Of a DNA stretch of 64,000 nt, positions 20,333 through 61,876 are shown in pieces. The stretch comes from Hansfordia pulvinata (lineage: Eukaryota > Ascomycota > Sordariomycetes > Xylariales): the NCBI GenBank assembly GCA_006538405.1, contig BJKQ01000002.1, positions 1,798,001 to 1,862,000 on the forward strand. The letters run 5' to 3'. The position numbers and the translations under genes were made by a program. The notes below the pieces were generated by a model, which saw only the letters and a list, made by a program, of their open reading frames with translations, had not been told where the DNA came from and did not search any database. How positions within the stretch are numbered: the stretch's first letter is position 1; each line of letters opens with the position of its first letter.

Positions 20333-23300
20333 TTACCCCCCCTGGCCCAAGCCGGCAGCTACGCCCCTCGCGACAGCATCCCAGTCTACCTGCCCCGCCT
20401 CGTTCATTAGCAGCCAGAGTGATGCCTCGGACTGCTTGGCCTCCGAGGGAGACATCTGACTGTGTCTTGTAGTGGCGGGAGCAGCGCCCCAGGATGTTGG
20501 CAGCGAAGCAGCGGCAGAAGCGGGAGCGGCGGGAGCAGCAGTCGAAGAAGCCGGCTCCCCCCCGCCACCAGCTGGAGAACCGGTTCGAACGGCCAAGTTG
20601 TACGCGCCGCCTAGGCTGCTGCCGCTCATTCCCGATTCGCGACCGGGGGAGCGAGACGGGACGTGCATCATGCCTTCCATACTCTTCATGCCCCAGTATG
20701 AGAGCGGGTCGCTGGAGGGTGAGAGTCTGCCCTCGTTCTTGTTATTCTTGTCGTTGTCGGTGCTGTTGGGCGGCGAAGGGCGCGAGGATGAGGACGAGGA
20801 AAGAGGGGTTCCGCCGCTGCTGCAGGTACTCCTCGTCTGGTCTGCCGTACCGGCGCCATTGTTGAAATTGGGAGAGGCTGCGGTAGTACTCGGGGCCGAG
20901 GTGCGCTTGCGCTTGTGGTTGTGGCTATTGTTGCCGCTGCTGTCTGTGACCACCTCGGAGACCCTCCTTGTCGTCACGTCCCCGCAGTCACCGAATCGCA
21001 ACGGGGAGCACGAGGCCGCCGAGGGCGGCGAGTCTGTTGTTGTCGACGGCGCAGGCGTCTCGAGGTAGGTGGAGAAGCCCGGGATGATCTCCGGGGCAGC
21101 CGGGTCGCATAACCACTGTCTAGGCGGCCGGGGGAAGTTGCGTCCAAAGAGGTTGTAGCCTGCCGGGCGTGTGCCGGCTCCGCCGTAGCCGTAAACGTTA
21201 CCTCCCTCGTCGGCGCTGCCACTGCTGGCCCATCGCGGAGAGTAGCTGCTGAGGAGACCGTTACTTGTGCGTTGCTCCATGCCGCAAAGCGCGGAGAGGG
21301 TGTTGGCTACTGTGTTGATGTCTGGGCGGGGCGACGCTGGCGAGAAGGCGTGAGGGTACTGATTTTGTTGGTGCTGTTGACTGCGCCACGGAGGAGGTCT
21401 GGCGTTCCGCCTCCGAGTGACGAGGGGCATATGATTGGACAGCATGGCCTCAGGCTCGGCGTTACACGGGTCGACCCAGGGGACAGCGATGGGCAGGGAG
21501 CGGTCGGCTAGAGGAGAGAGGTCGCGGCCCATCTGTCGCAGAAACGTACGCATCATCAGGTGATGGCGCGACAGCTCACCCATGACGGCCAGAACGTAGT
21601 TGAGATTTGCTAAGCTGGCTTCGGTCGAGGGGTGACCTCCTGGCAGCGGGGGCGGTTGTTGGTGCTGCTGTTCTTGTTGTGTCTGATTTGGTGCCTGTTG
21701 TTGTGGCGATTGCGGTGCTTGGGGTCGTCCTCTTCCCGGCGCTGTAGAGAAGTCGAGCTGGTCGATGAAGACGCAGCCTGCGCAATACAGCGACATGGCA
21801 GACATGGGACTGGACATGGGGCTCTTCTATGGCGGAGGCAGACAGCATGTCAGTAGTGGTACTTGAAAATGGAAGAAATACTGTGAAAAATGGGCGGGGC
21901 GAGGGATCGTGAGTAGACGGGGTGTGGATAGGGGCCACGGATAGGGTATCTAAGAAGAGGGGTGCCTCCAGAAGAGAGAAGAGGGGAAATTCGTACCGTG
22001 CTTGCCGACATTTTCCCGCTCATCCCGCTCATTTTCACAATGTTGACAATCTCCTGCGCTGATGCTGTCAAGCGATGAAAGCTGGCCTGCTCGACTGCCT
22101 CGGGCAGCTCGTGCTTCCTGGCCGTCTCGACGGCAGCGCTGTGAAGCGCAATGACGGCCGCGTGTAGGTTGAGGTTGTTATGGACCGAAACGGGGTCCCG
22201 CGAATTCTGCGGCAGCCGGAAGTGCTCGGGCATGAACATGAACGTGTTGCTCAGAGCGCTGTCTAACTCGCGGTGCCTCGCCCAGTATGCGCCGCCCTCG
22301 TGGTTCTCCGGATGGTCGTTTGGGGGAGGGCGGTGGATGTGCTTGATCATGCGGGTGAAGAGGCTGCCGACGACTACGGCGCCGGCAAAGGAGAAGTAGG
22401 GGGCGCCCTTGAGCGCGTCGTGGATGCTGCTCGTCTTGTGCTCGACGCCGCTGCTGAAGGCCTTCTCCGGGGCTGGGAGGAAGGTGGTCACGTCGGACGG
22501 TTCGATGAGACAGGGCCAGCCCGTCCAGATGGAGCTGTGGCCCTCTATGCAGAAAAGGGCCCAGAAGATACGTCGGCGCTCTTCGAGCTCCTGCCAGTCC
22601 TGGGCGGGAGGCAGGGGCGGGAAAGGGTCGGCCTGGTCCGGGCCGCAGTCGAGCCGGTGGAGGCCCATCATCTGGCACAGGCGGATGCCTCGCGACGTGC
22701 TGAGGGCGGACCGCGTGAAGAGCATGCTCTTGGCCTCGACGACGGCTAGCAGGCACCAGGCCTGCGCGTGCGCCACCGACACGGCCTGCTCGCCGTAGTT
22801 CCTCAGCTCGTCCGCCTCGAGGTACTGCCGGGCCCGCCGGTAGAAGACCTCATGGTAGTGGCGGTACTTGGGCGTCGCGTGGGAAGCCAGTGCCCACATG
22901 GCGTACTGCAAGCACATGGGCGGCTTCATGTGCGGCGCTGCGTAGAAGGCCTGGTAGTACCGGCCGGGGCTCACCGACGGCACAGTGTGGCTCTGCCGGT
23001 CGAAGTAGATTTGGTGGCTGGCAACAGGACGTGTCAGAGCGCGCTGGCAGCGGCGATGCGGCACAACAAACAAGAAACACTTCGACTTACAGGTCCTCGA
23101 TAATCTCCATCGGGGGCAGGCTCTCGGACAAACCCAGCTCCATCAGCTCACCGCCGAGTCCGCCGCCGAAAAGGGGCGAGCTGTGAGGATGTGAGGAGGG
23201 AGGGGCCCCACTGTTGATGCCCGGGTTCGCCATATCTTGGAAGAAGCCCCCCATTGCGGCGGCGGCGGATACGCTGTCTGGGCCGGCGGAAAAGTTGAAC

Positions 23301-24182
23301 GAGAAACTGGTGGCGCTCGGCTGCGGGGCCGGGGTCGGGGCGGCGGCCTGAGCCGTGTTCATGGAAGAAGGGGGGAAGTCGATGTTGAACCCGAAGAAGC
23401 CTTCCCCATCGCCGGCTGGTCCCGATCCTAGACCTGCCTCCGCTCCGGCAGCGCCCATGTCCATGTCCATGGCCATGTCCATGTCCGGGACGATCCCAGG
23501 TCCGGGCCCGAGCCCGGGACCGGAACCGGAGCCACGTCGGGTGGGGCCGGTGCTGGAGCCGGGGCCGGAGTCGGCGCCGACAGCCGGGGTCTGGTCTCGG
23601 CATTTTCGGCCCCGGTGTCGCGGCTCGCACCGAGGCCGCTTCCACTACCAGTAGCATCAGAGCCGCCGCCGTGACTGGCACTTGCGAGGGGCTCGCCGCC
23701 GCGCTTCACGACGGCTTCATTGAGCAGCTCTTCCACCTGGGCTGCGGGGGTCGCCCAAATCGCACCGGGCCTCCAGTCAGCCCGATGATCTGCGAGCGAG
23801 GGAAGAGGGAAACAAGCAAGGACATGGAAAAATCCAAGAGGCGCAGGGTGGGTGGGAGATACGACTCACCTAGCCTTGCCTCGAGCTCCTTGACGTTTCG
23901 CCGCTTGAAGGTCGGCTTGCGCCGCGACTCGGGGTAAACGCATTCGACCTTGCCCTTGGCGCAGCGGGCGCACTCGGGCTTGACGCGGTCGCACTTGAGC
24001 TTCCTGCTGCGGCAGGTTGCGCAGGACTGTACCGAAACACGGGCGAGCGGTTAGCGAGGCGTCTACGTTGTGAGCGAGACCAGGTGTATTACAAGGGCAT
24101 CGATCGCGACAGAAGCGGCCGTGTCGTCAGCCTCGGCCGGCGGCGGCATGTTTCCTGCTGCTGCTGCTGCGGGGGCGGTCAT
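20333..24182 (-). CDS. Zn(II)2Cys6 transcription factor with fungal-specific TF domain; one-base frame break
   Basis: Sequence-specific nuclear regulator. Five exons on the minus strand: 24182-24093, 24026-23870, 23741-23091, 23017-21997 and 21826-20333; introns are 66, 128, 73 and 170 bp, all GT-AG. The Zn2Cys6 cluster is at residues 32-59 (C-x2-C-x6-C-x6-C-x2-C-x6-C, CATCRSRKLKCDRVKPEC...), followed by a basic linker and a coiled coil (VKELEARLAQVEELLNEA) typical of dimerising members. The fungal_trans (PF04082-like) region is in exon 4 (YFDRQSHTVPSVSPGRYYQAF, SRGIRLCQMMGLHRLD, EERRRIFWALFCIEG). The C-terminal about 490 residues are Gln/Pro/Ser-rich and probably activating. Exon 3 changes frame between about 23,483 and 23,600, inside a Pro/Gly/GC-rich tract. 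Adding one missing base makes the whole gene 1137 codons plus stop. The target pathway cannot be told from sequence. Confidence 0.88.
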
Positions 24183-31278: not shown

Positions 31279-32797
31279 TTAGTTGCCCTCGACCTCAGGA
31301 TTGCTACCCTCGCCGTCACTCAAGGTAGCGCCGTCATCGCCGCTCTCTGTGGACTGCAAGACGGTTCCTGTCCGCCGGCCGTCCCGGGCGTCTTCTTCGG
31401 CGCGGGCGTTGTTGATCATGGTCGGCAATTGCCGCCTGCGAGCGTTGATGAACCAGTTGGAGATTTGGTCTGCGAAGAGGGTCGGAAGGTCAGCGCAAAG
31501 TCTCATAGGATACAAGATGCCATGTCCTAGCACAGGAAAACGTACTCATTTGCAAACCAGTCGTCGTCATCAACTGTTGCTTCTCATCCTCGCTCGGGTA
31601 AGGGTGCTGGAGGTGACTCATGAACCACGCGCGAAGCTTGTCTGTCGTCTCTTTGGGCAGGTTCCCCCGGCGCTTCCGCTGCTTGCTGTCGGCACTGGGC
31701 ACGACGCCAATGTCGCCGATGCGAACATACGAGTCCGAGTAAGGGTGCTGGTAGGTTCCAGGCGAGAACGGCGTCCGGTCGTACGGGTGAGCTGAGCCGG
31801 GCATGGGACCACGGGGCGGGGGCGCGCCGTAGGTCGGAGGGGCTTGTCTGTAGGCATCGGCTTCGCCCCGGGCATCGTAATGATGAGGGCGCCCCGGGCT
31901 GTGTGGTCCTCTGGCGTCGCGGTAGTAGGCGTCTCTGGGGTCCCTCGCACTTCTCGGGTCTTCTTGTCGCATATGGGCCAAGCTGGGCAGTGTTTGCCTC
32001 TGGTCGGCGCGTTCGGCATGCTCGTAGCGCCCGGGCTGCGAGTGTCCTGCCGTGCCGTTTGGGTATGGGGCGTCGTAGGGCCTTCCATGCGCCGCGGGGG
32101 GTGAGTCACGTTGGGCCGGGGCGAACTGCGGGCTGGCATGCAGCCTGCGGGTAGGGGTCCCCCTCTCATTCTCCAAGTCATGCTCTGCCGACAAACGATG
32201 CTTCCGGCCGTGGCTAGGTGACTGTGAATACTCCGGGGGCGTGTTGGGCACTGCTGCCCTTTGGCCCGCGTTGGAACCAGGCCGAGCAATGTCAGGGAGA
32301 TCTCTCAGGGCCTGATATACAGTTAGCTTCACGACAGGCGGTCTGAGTCCAGGATGGGGGCGTACCTCGTGAATCGGGGGAAGCCGGTACTGGCCGTGCT
32401 CGTCCTTCTTGAAAAGGCTCGGCTTTTCCGAAGCTGCCAAGGGCTGATAGTCGGGGCCGCCTCGCATAGCAGGCACCGACCGATGGTCGCGAGCCTCATG
32501 GCGGTACTCTACAGGGGCGCTGTCGTAGGCAGGTCGGGATTCCGGGTAAGAGTGCGCAGAGGAGGGCTGATCTCTGGACGCGGGCCGGTGAGGCAGGTAG
32601 TCGGCCCTGGGCCGTTGACTGGGCTCAGAGTCGGAGCCGTAGGCCGTCTGGCGCCAGATGTCGCGGGAGCCCATGGCTGGCGAGGCGCCGAAGACTCTGG
32701 GGTGGGAAGCGGTCATAACCTCGACCGACATTTTACTGGGAGAACGGGAGGCGTTGTTAAGAATTGTCGAAGTTGCCGTAGGCGGCGAGCCGGCCAT
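31279..32797 (-). CDS. TALE-class homeobox transcription factor (KN homeodomain)
   Basis: Nuclear DNA-binding regulator. Three exons on the minus strand: 32797-32366, 32311-31546 and 31469-31279; introns are 54 bp (with a GCTAAC branch-like site) and 76 bp. The product is 462 residues. The first intron is in frame and open, so a naive translation inserts 18 false residues after LPPIHE. The start is the first ATG (MAGSPPTATSTIL); the frame reads upstream only to a GTG. Residues 1-345 are disordered, rich in Arg/Pro/Tyr/His. The homeodomain runs about 356-416 (RKRRGNLPKETTDKLRAW), carries the three-residue loop insertion with PYP (HLQHPYPSEDEK), and has an intact recognition helix NQISNWFINARRRQLP assembled across intron 2. 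The last about 50 residues are acidic. It resembles fungal Tos8/Cup9-type TALE proteins, which in Sordariomycetes often govern sexual or conidial development; the precise orthologue is uncertain. Confidence 0.93.
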
Positions 32798-35700
32798 AGA
32801 CCACACGACGCTCCAAGATGGGGGGACCTGACGGGCTGAGCGATCTCCTGGTGGGGGGTGGGGGATTCTTCTTCCCGCTGTTGGCGAACGTGTGGTGGTG
32901 ATGTTTGTTGTTGAAGACCTCTCTCTACCAGTGGGCGGGCAAGCAGCGAGGGTGGGATGTTAACAGACGCTTGAGTCTGTTTGTGTATTTGTGCGGCTCT
33001 GCCAGAACCGTGCCGTGAGTGTGTTGTGGGTGTGTGGGTGGCTCCTGTGTGTGTGTGTATGTATGTTTGATATGGTGAGATGCAAACGAAGGTGTGCGGT
33101 GGGCGGGCAGACGATGTTATAGGAAAGGCAGGTGGCCGGGAGAAGGGAGATGGAAGTATATGAAGAAGGTCCAAAAGCCGGTAGCTCACGTTAGCAGGGT
33201 TTCCCACGGTTCGCAGCTGCATCATGTACGTACATACCTCCCGGGCTACACGCAGGTGGAAGATAGGTGGTAGGTACGTTTAGGCAAGTAAAGTGCCTCC
33301 AATGTACCGTCGGTCCAGTTCGGACGGGGCCACCCATGAGGCAGACGCACAGAACGTACGGGTAGCAGAGGCAAAGGTACTCGTACTTACCTACCGTACC
33401 TACTACCCATCCATACCGGCGAGCAGGCGGCAGGACAGTCGAGTCCGTCCGCGGCCAGCTAACGGATCCATCTCCCATGCCTCGTGGAGACGGGGCAGGG
33501 TGACAACCTAACCGGGCGTGACACAGCACCACCACTACCACCACGTTAGCCCCCCCTGGCGGCGAGTCTCCCCCGAAAGCCCAGCTCTGACCTCTGGCCC
33601 GAAACCTGGGAGCCCCACCGCGATTAACACGGACGTAATTCGGCGCAAGGAATGGCACGCAGGCCGAGTAGTTATTTCAAGACAAGGCGAGATGGAGGAA
33701 GACCCTGGCACGCTTACGAGCGGATACCTGAGCCCAGTCTCTGGCGGGTACGTTGGGTCCATGGCCTGTGGGTACTGCGTCTCCATCGCATTGGATCTTG
33801 GGCTGGGCTACTTCTCTGGTAAGTAGGCAGGCACCCATACTGGAAGCACCTTCTTTACTCTCGCTGGATCTCAGTCCGGTTCAAGGCCGGGCCACCTATG
33901 TGTAAGTGCGGTACCGTACATGTAGGTAGGCTGATGGGCCTCTCGTCTGTCGAGTACATTCTCGACACGGGCCGCCCAGTCTCTACCGTAACCACATGTA
34001 CGAGTATCTCTGTTGTTCAAACGAGTGGCCATTGAGACTGGCCCGGGGCTCGTCGGATCTCTCCTACCTACGTTGGGGTGCTTGCTCCTATCCTCTCCGA
34101 AGTATCTGGCCGCTGTGAACGAACGGAACAGAGCCCATGGGAGGAGAAATGGCTTGAGGGGAGGTACGGTACCCAGGGTGACATTCGGTCCCGTCTGCGT
34201 CAGGTTTCCGTCGGTGTTGGTCGCCAATCCAGATCTGTTGGTTCGACGCGAGCAAGGCAGGCGCAATATCGAGAGCACATTGCCTACCTGCACGTGTCGA
34301 GGCAGTCGCCTCCTCAGCTACGCGTAAGTACCTCTACTCGTACTGCCACGATCGGACTTCCACGAACGCTTGATGTAGGCAGGTACGAGTCGACGGAGGT
34401 ACTTGGCACGAGTTCTGGTTACTTTTAGCGTTCGGCCAGCGCCGCGACCCGAGAGGCGGGGAGCATGGCGACATACATTCATCTGCAGACTGGAAGCAAC
34501 ATGAGAAGAGGCATGTCGTATCTTTCCACCCATGCGCTACCTAGCACAGGCACGTCCATACCCCGTATGGCTGCTCTTCTGGATGTACACGTACTACCAA
34601 AGCAAGCAGTTCCAAGTTGAGAAGGGGGTGTTCCTCGTGAGGCAGGCTTCTCGTGATACTACTCTTAGAAGCACCCGAGCGACCCCTTGCACCACCACGC
34701 ACCACCACCACCCGCGGACGGGGTGCATAGGGCATGGATATACATCCACTGTATGAGAGCCCATAGACAAGGGCTGACGGGGCGAGACGAGACGACACCA
34801 GCGCGGCGAGTATTACAAGCACAAAGCACAGCGTCGGGCCCAGGTCCAGGTCCAGATTCAGGTTCAGGTCCGGTTCAATGGGGCCAGGTCCAGGTCCAGC
34901 CCAGGTCATTCCAGCCAGGGAGCTCGAGGTACTGTACAAGAGGCGAAGCGACGGGGGCGGATGCAAGATGGGCGTAGCCGAAGATGCCGTGCCCACTTTC
35001 CCCACAGAGCCGCCAAGCCCTCCCACCCTTCCTAAGGGGGCGCGTGGGCGCGCGCTTCGGAGGCACTCGGTCGGTGGGGGGAAAGGGCCCCGAAGTCACT
35101 GGCTATTGAAAAGTACCTACGTAGATCCTAGAGGCATGTACGGGTACGCCCATTCATTGTGATAAGGGGGTGAGATTGGATGTACGAGAAGGTAGAGTCC
35201 AACTTGAGATTCACGCCTCTTCCAAGTGCAACTGCAGTGCGTGCCTTCCCTGCGCCTAAGGTTGGCGACCTCGAGGTTGTTCCAAGACGGGCGGGCAGCT
35301 TAAGGTAGTTACGAGTACTACGAAGTGTGGCCTGTCTGAAGCCTGTCCACCCTGGATATCTGCAGCCATCAAGCGCTCCAGTGTCGCGCATCGGGGCCGG
35401 CGGTGGTCGGACCTAATTGTGCCTCCGGGAATTCACGCATGGTTGGATATGTATGTACATGACGCCCATCTCGGTCTGGGTCCCCCCCGTCAGGTCAGGG
35501 TCTCATGTCGTTCAGGGGGAGAGAGAGCATTGGAAATGCCGGCCCTGAATCGGCACCATCACGGACGACAGATCAATGAACGGGACATGGAAGGGCCTGA
35601 TGGATTCTGATCGAATAGCGGCTTCGTTAGCGTGCCAACTTGCCTGGTGCGAGTAGGTACATACCTGCCTCTCATGCTCGTACGAGAGTACCTCCTGACG

Positions 35701-58614: not shown

Positions 58615-59960
58615 TTAACGGCCTTGGTCAGGCCGGTTACGGATGATGCGGCTGAAGAGACCCCGGCCTCCGCTTGGCCTTCCAGCTTTCCTCTCCTCTT
58701 CGAGATGTGCTCTGGATGCTGCCAATGCTTTCTGGTAGACCGGGTCGTCCTCATCCTCCTCCACAAGATCATATTCGGAGCCCGCCGATCGGCCCTTGAC
58801 GCTCCTCTTGGAATCGCTCATCGGCGTGGATCTGCCCGACCCTGGGCGAGCCTCCTGCATCTTGGATAGTCCGCGATCGAGTGACGGGACCAGGTTGGCT
58901 TTGAAATTCCAGTCACCCTCGGGCTTATCGCGAGCCTGCTTGGAGATGGCCGGCTCGAACTGCTCGAATTCAACCTCCAGCTGCTTCTGGTGCTGGACCA
59001 TGGCTTCCATGCGCTCTGCCTTGACGGCGGGCACGAGTTCGGTCTGGTGATGCCGCCCCTCGGTCTGCAGCTGCTTCAGCCACTCGTCGTATTGTCGCCA
59101 GTCCTCCTTCTGAAACATCGTTAGCTGTTGCGCGCTTCCTGCTGTTTAGGGGCGCCTGCACTTACCCTCTTTTCAAGGGCCCTTTCCTCCAGACTCTCGA
59201 GGTGCCTCCTCGCATTGTCTGTCATCTTGGTCCCGGCAATGTACTTGTCGAATGAGGCGGAGAACTCGCGGAAGTGTCCCTTGAGAACGAAGCACTGTCC
59301 GTTCCAGCCACGCCCTCTCAGTTTCTGATACATCGCCTCTGCCGTGGGTGCCTCCCAGGAGAACTCGACATGTTTGTCGTAAAACACGATGCATTTGCTC
59401 GAGATCCACTTGTGGAATGTCTCCCGCGCATCATCATCTGGAAGCGTCGCCTCAAGCATTTCAAGAGACGCTCTGGAGACCACAGACGCCGGTGCACGGA
59501 AGTGGAGCGCGCCGTGGATGTGAGAGCGCTCGTACTCGGCGGCAGAACGCAAGTCAACCACCAGGACGGAGCTTGGGGGCACAATCTCGAGGAGCCTGTT
59601 CATATGGCCTGGGAGGAGCATGTGGACATTTTGCGAGGACGATGTCCGGCTGCTGTCGTCGATCCGTAGGTTCTGGAGTCTCTCGGAGACCTTTTGTTGT
59701 TCCCGGCGATGGAAGAACCAGATCTGGCTTTGTTAGCAAGTGGGATGAGATATTGGCTTCAACACTGGACTTACATCAACATCGGTAGTTTCCACGCCCA
59801 GGTTCGAGGCCAGGAACTCCTTGACGGCGGTTGTGGGCGCAGGGTTGTCGCAGAAGTAGGACTCCAGTCTTGCTTGAATATGGGGAGCAAGCTCTGGCCG
59901 GTTGGGTATGTCCTCGCCGGATTCTAAAAACGTCCGTCTGCTGTTGCGTTGTTGATTCAT
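58615..59960 (-). CDS. Homeodomain-like plus inactive rhodanese-like protein
   Basis: Three exons on the minus strand: 59960-59775, 59723-59166 and 59109-58615, all phase 0, giving 412 residues. Introns are 51 and 56 bp, start GTAAGT, and the second has a GCTAAC branch site. Residues 21-75 resemble a homeodomain: RPELAPHIQARLESYF, then KEFLASNLGV, and a recognition helix IWFFHRREQQ (63-72) in which the DNA-contacting Asn of WFxN is His67. Residues about 95-220 are rhodanese-like: SSVLVVDLRSAAEYERSHI, GALHFRAP, CIVFYDKHVEF and FVLKGHFREF. The active-site Cys position is Asp178, so sulfurtransferase activity is not expected. The tail is charged, with a coiled-coil-like stretch (250-310) and Ser/acidic segments. 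Its ATG overlaps the stop of the caspase-like frame. Inference: a binding or regulatory protein. Confidence 0.85.
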
Positions 59961-61876
59961 GATAGGGACTCTCGATATGTTGTCGTGGAGATGCTTCTGG
60001 AAAGCATTGATGGCGGAGCGGTGTTTTGTCGGTGGGGCACGATCATGGAGTGTCCGGTGGTGGTGCCCCGGGACGCAATATCGTGCAGGCTGGACGGAGT
60101 GGCGAAAGACGCACCAGACCTAGCGCGGCTTCTTGTTGAAGGCGCGAACGATTTCTGGCTGAAGCGGCGAGACGGGTCGATAGGCGATCTGAACATGCTT
60201 TGGCGGTCGCCGCCCAGAGTGTCGGCGTCGTTGAACGTGTAAGCTGTGGTGCCCGAGAAGATGGAGAATCTGGATTCGTCGACTTCCGGGATTATCGGCA
60301 CCTCGGTCTCGATGGGTGTCGAGGTGCCGTGGTCCTTGATGGCAAGGTTGTTGGAGCGAACAAAGGCGATGAAGTTGCAAGCGTGGTTGTCCGGCAGAAG
60401 GTCCCAGACCATGACGGGCATGGACATCAGGAGCAGCGTCGAGTGACTCTTGAAAACACCCTGGACCTTGACATATTTTGCAATAGCGGGTATGCTCTGT
60501 AGCCACGTCTCCCACTCGTTGATGTTCAGCCGCTGATCCTCCTCCAATGCGAGAGAGATCATGACGTGGGGTACGTCCTCGTTTGGCTCGGTGTTCATGA
60601 TCTCCTGGGGGCCGGCAGAACGTCCTGCGAGGGCCGTAGACTCGTCAAAGTTGTCGTGAGCTTCGTGCAGCTCCATGGGTTCTTGCGGGGGCGACGGTGG
60701 TATCTGGTCTGCTGGGATGATTCTCGTCATTTCGATACTGGGCGCCTTGTGGTTCGCTGTCATCATGAAGTGAACCGGGGTCGACCGTGCTTCGAAATGC
60801 TTGCCATTCAGCATGATCGGTCTGGGGTGCTTTAACCTGGCAAGAACCTCGGCATGAAGCATAGCTGCCGAGAACGACCTCCTGTTCCACTCCTGAAGCA
60901 CTTCGATGAGGGCGTTGGTGAACGAGTAGCGGCCCGGGTCGGGGGCAATGGCATCCCAACTAGAGGCTGATATCGTCTCGGTGATGCTGTTACCCTGGGG
61001 AAAGGTGGCGCTCGCCGCTCCGGCACAGCAGTCCAACAAGATCAGCACGTCCGAAAGTGATCGTTCGAGTAGCGTCTGAATGGCAGACCACCTGAAAATA
61101 AGTCAGCGTCTCCGTCCCGTGGTTGACGCCATAGAATGCGCGACTTACTGTAGCCATGGCGAATCCGAGCTCCGGGTTCTAACGCGACAATGTCAGCTCG
61201 GTCAAGCAGCGAGGCGAGGCGGGCGGATGCGTGACTTACGCGCACCAGGTGCTTTGTCTGGACTCGTCGATTTTGGCATGGCCGCCGTAGTATACAATGA
61301 AAAGGGTGTCGGGCGACTCGTGCTCCTTGATCATGGTCGCCACCCTCAGCATCAACTCGAGGTGTGCATTGTCCGAGGGGATGGAGAAGGTCTCGGTGTC
61401 GAAGTTGAAGTCTTCGCGAAAGCACGTGTCGAGGTCTTCAAGCTCGGGCAGAACGAACAAGTCGTCGGATCTCCAGTGCAACAGTATGGCATGGACCTTC
61501 TTATAGCGCTGAGAGCTCCCACGGTTGGGAAAGGCGCGAGCGGCGGACTAATAGCGGATGGGTCAGCACCGATGAAGGGGCGAGGCCTGGTCGGCCCACG
61601 GGGTAGAGCGGCAATACGCACATCTTCGAGGCTTTTCGCAAAGTCGGGCAGGTGTTTGACGTGGTAGTTGACGCGGCTGATGTCGTGGGTCGCTGGTGGC
61701 GGCCTCTCATCTCCAGCGCTTGAGCCGTACTGAGAAGGAGTGATTAGATGGGAGGGGTTTCGGAAGACGTCTCTCTGCGTTTCACGACGTACGGCAGAAT
61801 CCCCGCTGCTCAAGCTGGTGCCATCGGCAGGCTGCCGCGAGCACAGCGTGACGAATGGCTGGTTGCGGTCCGCCAT
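59957..61876 (-). CDS. Caspase-like (peptidase C14) protein
   Basis: Four exons on the minus strand: 61876-61622, 61547-61240, 61178-61149 and 61091-59957; introns are 74, 61 and 57 bp with GT-AG ends. The product is 575 residues. The start is the first ATG (MADRNQPFVTLCSRQ); upstream the frame opens only from TTG. The caspase-like p20 region spans about residues 95-230: KVHAILLHWRSDDLFVL (first strand), TLFIVYYGGHAKIDES with candidate catalytic His175, and VLILLDCCAGAAS with candidate catalytic Cys220, aligned to the DSCHSG box of metacaspases. A tiny 30-nt third exon lies just before the Cys strand. Residues about 230-575 hold a small-subunit-like part (SFTNALIEVLQEWNRRSF, FEARSTPVHFMM) and a disordered Ser/Thr/Arg-rich tail. 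It lacks the Pro/Gln-rich prodomain of classical type I metacaspases. The frame ends in TGA overlapping the next ATG. Substrate unknown. Confidence 0.88.

What the first reader, a model, noticed from the sequence alone, without database searches (positions are those of the whole stretch)
59957..59960. ATGA stop/start overlap joins a caspase-like gene to a homeodomain/rhodanese-like gene
The last codon of the caspase-like frame (TGA, 59959-59957) overlaps the ATG (59960-59958) of the next gene. Four-base overlaps are usual in bacterial operons but very unusual between fungal nuclear genes, because re-initiation is inefficient. Either one mRNA yields both proteins, or a single base is missing and the true product is one protein of roughly 990 residues: caspase-like, homeodomain-like, inactive rhodanese. 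Adding one base before the stop joins the frames, the same direction as the breaks at 8.2 and 23.5 kb. A protease-like domain covalently or translationally tied to a rhodanese-like binding module would be a new architecture to me.
Basis: partly seen in the sequence, partly recalled or inferred. Interest (0 to 1): 0.8.

Follow-up and report, generated by a model that had tools for sequence, protein, structure and literature searches.

The report
Frame break inside one fungal gene
The apparent two-gene overlap is one conserved fungal developmental gene whose reading frame is broken, most likely by a missing base in the genome assembly; the intact protein joins a caspase-fold domain, a homeodomain and a rhodanese-like domain.

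Summary
The ATGA at 59960-59957 is there, but it does not join two genes. A search with the two products laid end to end gave 416 proteins; all 120 that were listed carry both halves, in order, in one protein of 767-1123 residues. Frame conservation switches about 25 bases before the ATGA: the TGA is the first stop after a break, the ATG an internal codon. ATGA overlaps follow from 6-57% of hypothetical breaks. Breaks in the same direction occur elsewhere in this assembly: two HSP70 genes, a CCT chaperonin gene, a protein kinase, an actin-family gene, and the DUF3605 gene at 8.2 kb. Assembly error is by far the likeliest cause; a real mutation is not excluded.

The parts
59957..61876 (-). 5' part of the gene: exons 61876-61793, 61729-61622, 61547-61240, 61178-61149, 61091-59957; 554 residues up to the out-of-frame stop
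   Evidence: splice-site model and translation; matches all 120 listed relatives
60713..61627 (-). caspase-fold domain, about residues 63-303 of the first product (introns included in the span)
61278..61280 (-). His154; this column is His in 120 of 120 relatives (motif YYGGH; the string GGH in 118 of 120)
61025..61027 (-). Cys199; this column is Cys in 115 of 120 relatives and gapped in the other five (motif LLDCCAGA)
59965..60000 (-). stretch within which frame conservation switches (best estimate about 59,990-59,980)
   Evidence: alignment to relatives and profile match of each frame apart
59957..59960 (-). ATGA: first stop after the break overlapping an internal Met codon
58615..59960 (-). 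3' part of the gene: exons 59960-59775, 59723-59166, 59109-58615 (stop 58617-58615); 412 residues in the second frame
59691..59885 (-). homeodomain (residues 26-73 of the second product; spans the intron at 59774-59724), His where most homeodomains have Asn51 (recalled numbering)
   Evidence: Pfam PF00046 E 1.7e-8; residue counts; mapping
59256..59570 (-). rhodanese-like domain (residues 114-218 of the second product)
   Evidence: Pfam PF00581 E 3e-10; best PDB sequence match of the product is the dual-specificity phosphatase 10 domain, and Foldseek's best match of the P0022 model is the same domain

Best explanation
There is one gene, orthologous to MoHOX4/PAH7, and its reading frame is broken in this assembly by a net shift equal to one missing base some 25 bases before the ATGA, most likely a consensus error rather than biology. 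In the relatives one protein of mostly 850-1120 residues is made: a caspase-fold domain with a conserved His/Cys pair, a second conserved region, a variable linker, an altered homeodomain, a rhodanese-like domain without the usual active-site Cys, and a helical tail. My working mechanism is inferred: the caspase-fold domain senses or cleaves a partner (or the linker of the protein itself), and the homeodomain and rhodanese-like parts act as nucleic-acid and protein docking modules, the latter possibly for a MAP kinase. Shown: the overlap, the break, the fusion in relatives, the conserved residues, and the folds in a predicted model. Not shown: that this base is an error in this strain, proteolytic activity, DNA binding or kinase binding.
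For: All 120 listed relatives of 416 carry both halves in order in one protein. In the first-half search 88 of 114 newly listed proteins also match the second half. Among all 247 fetched proteins, 91 of under 780 residues match the first half to residue 426 or beyond and the second half from residue 31 or before, and in 85 of these the match stops at or before gene 2 residue 80, near the intron after residue 62; many are metagenome fragments that end in intron-like sequence, so their exon seems to run through the junction. Of 13 hits of the second product alone, five begin after the homeodomain and eight carry first-half sequence; none is a clean separate gene. In six families of the same assembly (210 matches, 124,530 matched bases), neighbouring matches of one gene differ from the profile spacing by 47 bases or more, as introns give, or by one base short: two HSP70 genes, one CCT gene and one protein kinase at -1; one actin-family gene at -10 has the same frame change. 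No pair was one base over; one further actin-family pair at -90 keeps its frame (frames read). The DUF3605 gene at 8.2 kb is split the same way. All seven breaks that I read frame by frame, this one included, go in the same direction.
Against: No reads or second assembly of this strain were available, so error is inferred from the pattern. There is no homopolymer of four or more bases in 60010-59960, where long-read errors would usually be expected (recalled). Deletion mutants of orthologues grow, so a real loss could survive. Relatives were seen as predicted proteins, not as their genomic DNA. A shift of two extra bases cannot be told from one missing. The survey sees matched stretches only, so its rate (5 per 124.5 kb) is a lower bound.
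Confidence: 0.93

Rival explanations
1. The frame break is real: this strain carries a recent mutation that truncates the protein after the caspase-fold half.
For: Orthologue deletion mutants grow in Podospora and Magnaporthe with mild phenotypes, so loss could be tolerated. No long homopolymer marks the site.
Against: Both halves are otherwise intact, with splice sites and conserved residues kept, and breaks in the same direction occur in HSP70, CCT and other conserved genes of the same assembly.
Confidence: 0.05
2. Two proteins are made from one mRNA by termination and re-initiation at the ATGA, or one protein by programmed frameshifting.
For: The ATGA geometry fits coupled termination and re-initiation as known in bacteria and some viruses (recalled).
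Against: All 120 listed relatives are predicted as one protein. Frame 2 matches the relatives upstream of the ATG. By eye there is no slippery heptamer before the stop. ATGA arises at 6-57% of hypothetical breaks.
Confidence: 0.01
3. An unrecognised intron removes the stop and restores the frame.
For: A donor-like and an acceptor-like sequence lie upstream of the stop by eye.
Against: Such an intron would remove the RQxTAPP motif that frame 1 shares with relatives. Frame 1 and frame 2 conservation leave only some tens of bases for the switch, and 85 of 91 junction-spanning short models run to the next intron.
Confidence: 0.01

Closest known systems
MoHOX4 (MGG_06285) / PAH7 / NCU00100 / CsHOX4 homeobox-rhodanese class of Sordariomycetes
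   Same: Homeodomain followed by a rhodanese domain; the 120 listed relatives show 48-63% identity to the query, apart from two partial alignments at 70-73%; MGG_06285 is among them as P0116
   Different: As sequenced the window's gene is split over two frames; the papers describe a homeobox factor and the word caspase does not occur in them
Caspase / paracaspase fold (caspase-6, MALT1)
   Different: 6-16% sequence identity; Pfam Peptidase_C14 reaches E 0.01 in 3 of 42 members scanned and not in the window's product; activity unknown
MAP-kinase-binding rhodanese domain of dual-specificity phosphatases (MKP5/DUSP10)
   Same: Best sequence match of the window's second product (E 2.2e-5) and best Foldseek match of the P0022 model (E 6.6e-4)
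   Different: Modest scores; no phosphatase domain found; kinase docking untested
Caspase-like proteins with other tails in Leotiomycetes and Fusarium-like fungi (P0204, P0229, P0231, P0234, P0235)
   Same: Share the first half at about 42-52% identity and mostly the His and Cys motifs
   Different: Myb, DUF3295, YDR124W-type or C2 domains in place of homeodomain and rhodanese

Membership tests
MoHOX4/PAH7 homeobox-rhodanese class | homeodomain (PF00046) | tested here: met
   E 1.7e-8, 34.6 bits over the cut-off of 22.9
MoHOX4/PAH7 homeobox-rhodanese class | rhodanese domain (PF00581) behind the homeodomain | tested here: met
   E 3e-10; named as characteristic of the class in PMC5666362 (passage)
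MoHOX4/PAH7 homeobox-rhodanese class | similarity to named members over most of the length | tested here: met
   MGG_06285 (P0116) 54% over 92%; pah7-named P0114 and P0117 52% over 89%
MoHOX4/PAH7 homeobox-rhodanese class | one continuous reading frame | tested here: inconclusive
   two frames as sequenced; probably an assembly error
caspase clan (peptidase C14) | caspase fold | tested here: met
caspase clan (peptidase C14) | His and Cys at the catalytic places | tested here: inconclusive
   motif columns: His 120 of 120; Cys 115 of 120 with five gapped models; geometry not measured
caspase clan (peptidase C14) | Pfam PF00656 over its cut-off | tested here: not met
   no match in the window's product; 3 of 42 class members at E 0.01 or better; of nine first-half relatives scanned, four pass the cut-off: P0231, P0234, P0235, P0237. 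Hence not filed as a C14 member
caspase clan (peptidase C14) | proteolytic activity | not testable with these tools
   none
sequence-specific homeodomain transcription factors | Asn at homeodomain position 51 (recalled) | tested here: not met
   His in the window; across 120 relatives His 101, Asn 7, Gln 6, other 6
active rhodaneses | active-site Cys after the central strand (recalled) | tested here: inconclusive
   the position after the KCVVFY strand is Asp in 109, Ala in 8, Ser in 2 and Gly in 1 of 120, never Cys; placed by motif, not by structure

The most novel reading that the evidence does not exclude
The MoHOX4/PAH7 'homeobox transcription factors' are primarily caspase-fold proteins: members of a fungal module-swapping family in which one caspase-like domain with a conserved His/Cys pair is joined to homeodomain-rhodanese, Myb, C2, DUF3295 or other tails. 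They shape fruiting-body pattern and spore size by regulated cleavage, or as an inactive caspase scaffold, and not by classical homeodomain DNA binding.
Probability: 0.35. Interest if true: 0.7.

Novelty: new member of a known kind. Interest (0 to 1): 0.33.

Why it matters
The overlap itself would mislead: it is the footprint of a frame break, and this assembly has others in conserved genes, so other single-frame oddities in this window deserve the same doubt. The gene behind it matters more. A class of fungal regulators named and deleted as homeobox factors carries a predicted caspase fold with a conserved His/Cys pair and a homeodomain that mostly lacks Asn51. That makes a direct test possible: does the developmental role of PAH7/MoHOX4 need the cysteine or the homeodomain?

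Tried and rejected
Rejected: coupled translation and programmed frameshifting; hidden intron; two separate genes in relatives. Against my reading stand 26 of 114 newly listed proteins that match the first half only. Ten of them carry another named domain: Myb P0204, P0224; DUF3295 P0229, P0232, P0233; YDR124W-type P0231; C2 P0234, P0235, P0246, P0247. P0145 is a 427-residue Colletotrichum graminicola model; P0192 and P0195 are partial; the rest show no named tail and were not followed up. Suspected breaks at the 3' end of the APC3-like gene (about 3.1 kb) and in a cytochrome b5 reductase-like gene (about 10.7 kb) are ordinary introns of 62 and 52 bases. A PDB sequence search with the class profile showed no caspase among the 60 best of 146 rows; only fold comparison did. 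Paper searches for a caspase part of this class returned 0 papers, and 'caspase' occurs 0 times in the main text of the five papers, of which I saw passages only. The library lacks most subscription journals.

Limits: the 120 listed proteins are the best of 416, so more distant members are outside the counts. Class names of organisms are recalled; one listed hit bears the name Lasiodiplodia, not a Sordariomycete. The five gapped Cys models are four Monosporascus and one Xylariaceae. The model of P0022 has mean pLDDT 58 and pTM 0.41; only its domains are well predicted. Names such as CDK-like for the kinase rest on recall.

Full report
Observation. The minus strand carries a TGA at 59959-59957 overlapped by an ATG at 59960-59958. 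A splice model gives a 554-residue first product and a 412-residue second product. The second has a homeodomain and a rhodanese domain by Pfam; the first has no Pfam match. The window lies in contig C2 of a 46.8 Mb genome in 63 contigs.

Relatives. Searching with the two products laid end to end gave 416 proteins; the best 120 are listed, at 48-63% identity apart from two partial alignments at 70-73%. The organism names shown are mostly of Sordariomycetes, the best of them Xylariales (classes recalled). All 120 match both products, in order, in one protein of 767-1123 residues, 116 of them at least 850. The second product alone found 13 proteins: five begin after the homeodomain and eight carry first-half sequence. 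The first 425 residues of the first product found 391 proteins, 120 listed; of the 114 newly listed, 88 also match the second product and 26 do not. Among all 247 fetched proteins, 91 of under 780 residues match both sides of the junction, and in 85 of them the match ends at or before gene 2 residue 80, close to the intron after residue 62. Many of these are metagenome predictions that run out into intron-like sequence there, so their exon seems to pass through the junction; a few are annotated models.

Where the frame breaks. Aligned to the relatives, frame 1 carries the RQxTAPP motif and the following LSRSIS, while frame 2 carries DNISR and IMNQ in the relatives' register. A profile of the relatives matches frame 1 to residue 548 (profile position 532) and the open stretch of frame 2 from profile position 517, with 510 bits against 499 when only the part from the ATG is given. 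LSRSIS ends at 59987 and DNISR begins at 59984. The switch therefore lies roughly within 60000-59965, about 25 bases before the ATGA; the linker there is variable and the two matches overlap, so this is approximate. The ATG is an internal codon and the TGA the first stop met in the wrong frame. For hypothetical one-base-short breaks the first stop forms an ATGA with an in-frame ATG at 89 of 444, 178 of 313 and 41 of 675 positions in three coding stretches of this window, so the overlap needs no explanation of its own.

Error or mutation. I surveyed six conserved families in the same genome: Cpn60_TCP1, HSP70, tRNA-synt_1, kinesin and actin (69 matches, 54,651 bases) and protein kinases (141 matches, 69,879 bases). 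For neighbouring matches of one gene I compared the DNA distance with the profile distance. The differences are 47 bases or more, as introns give, or one base short, with two others. One base short are two HSP70 genes, one CCT gene and one protein kinase. One actin-family pair gives -10, the same frame change with alignment slop, its second match being below the family cut-off; another actin-family pair gives -90 in the same frame. No pair is one base over. tRNA-synt_1 and kinesin gave no break. Reading the three frames at the five places shows conserved sequence switching frame with no room for an intron. In the window the DUF3605 gene at 8.2 kb is split likewise, profile positions 10-59 in one frame and 61-154 in the next. 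All seven breaks go in the same direction. It is unlikely that HSP70 and CCT genes are dead, so I infer a common cause, consensus error. Two further suspected breaks in the window proved to be introns. I could not see reads, and the site has no homopolymer of four or more bases nearby, which leaves a small chance of a real mutation.

What the gene is. The Podospora paper equates PAH7 with MoHOX4 = MGG_06285, says pah7 had been missed because its region contained numerous sequencing errors, and reports that the only change found in the deletion strain was the distribution of perithecia (PMC3360767, passages). Deleting MoHOX4 makes smaller conidia (PMC2779367, passages). PMC5666362 (passage) names the rhodanese domain as characteristic of the class and gives NCU00100 as the Neurospora member. 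PMC6596325 (passage) reports a homeobox protein with a C-terminal rhodanese-like domain in Ustilaginoidea. PMC8406175 (passages) reports such a protein in Colletotrichum species and larger conidia on deleting CsHOX4, called orthologous to MoHOX4. The word caspase does not occur in the main text of these five papers.

Module swapping. Among proteins matching only the first half, Pfam finds Myb repeats (P0204), DUF3295 (P0229), a YDR124W-type helical domain with a caspase match (P0231), and C2 with a caspase match (P0234, P0235); a bZIP match in P0218 is below its cut-off. Of the 26 such proteins, 24 show YYGGH or YYAGH and 22 show LDCC by motif search. Five paper searches for such combinations returned nothing.

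Verdict. The overlap is the by-product of a frame break, most likely an assembly error, in a member of a known class. The worthwhile lead is the caspase fold in that class and its module swaps.

Noticed in passing
   Followed up: yes
window about 23400-23500, minus strand: Possible frame break near a gene with a Fungal_trans domain (21853-23142), in low-complexity sequence; not tested against relatives.
   Followed up: partly
window 31493-32959, minus strand: Open frame with a TALE-type homeobox (PF05920) about 26 kb from this gene; in Podospora pah5 (TALE) and pah7 are tightly linked, so the linkage may be old.
   Followed up: partly
G000 C4:2020660-2022536, C4:1329605-1329786, C1:1513794-1515208, C2:29074-29921, C3:1409519-1410714: Frame breaks in the same direction in two HSP70, one CCT, one protein kinase and one actin-family gene of the same assembly.
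   Followed up: yes
relatives P0040, P0071, P0081, P0109, P0001, P0128: Protein models that lack the segment with the conserved Cys; the five Monosporascus ones join SPWL to HITETIS. This could be an annotation habit or an in-frame alternative acceptor that makes a Cys-less isoform.
   Followed up: no
relatives P0204, P0213, P0218, P0229, P0231, P0234, P0235: A similar caspase-like first half joined to Myb, DUF3295, YDR124W-type or C2 domains in other fungi.
   Followed up: partly
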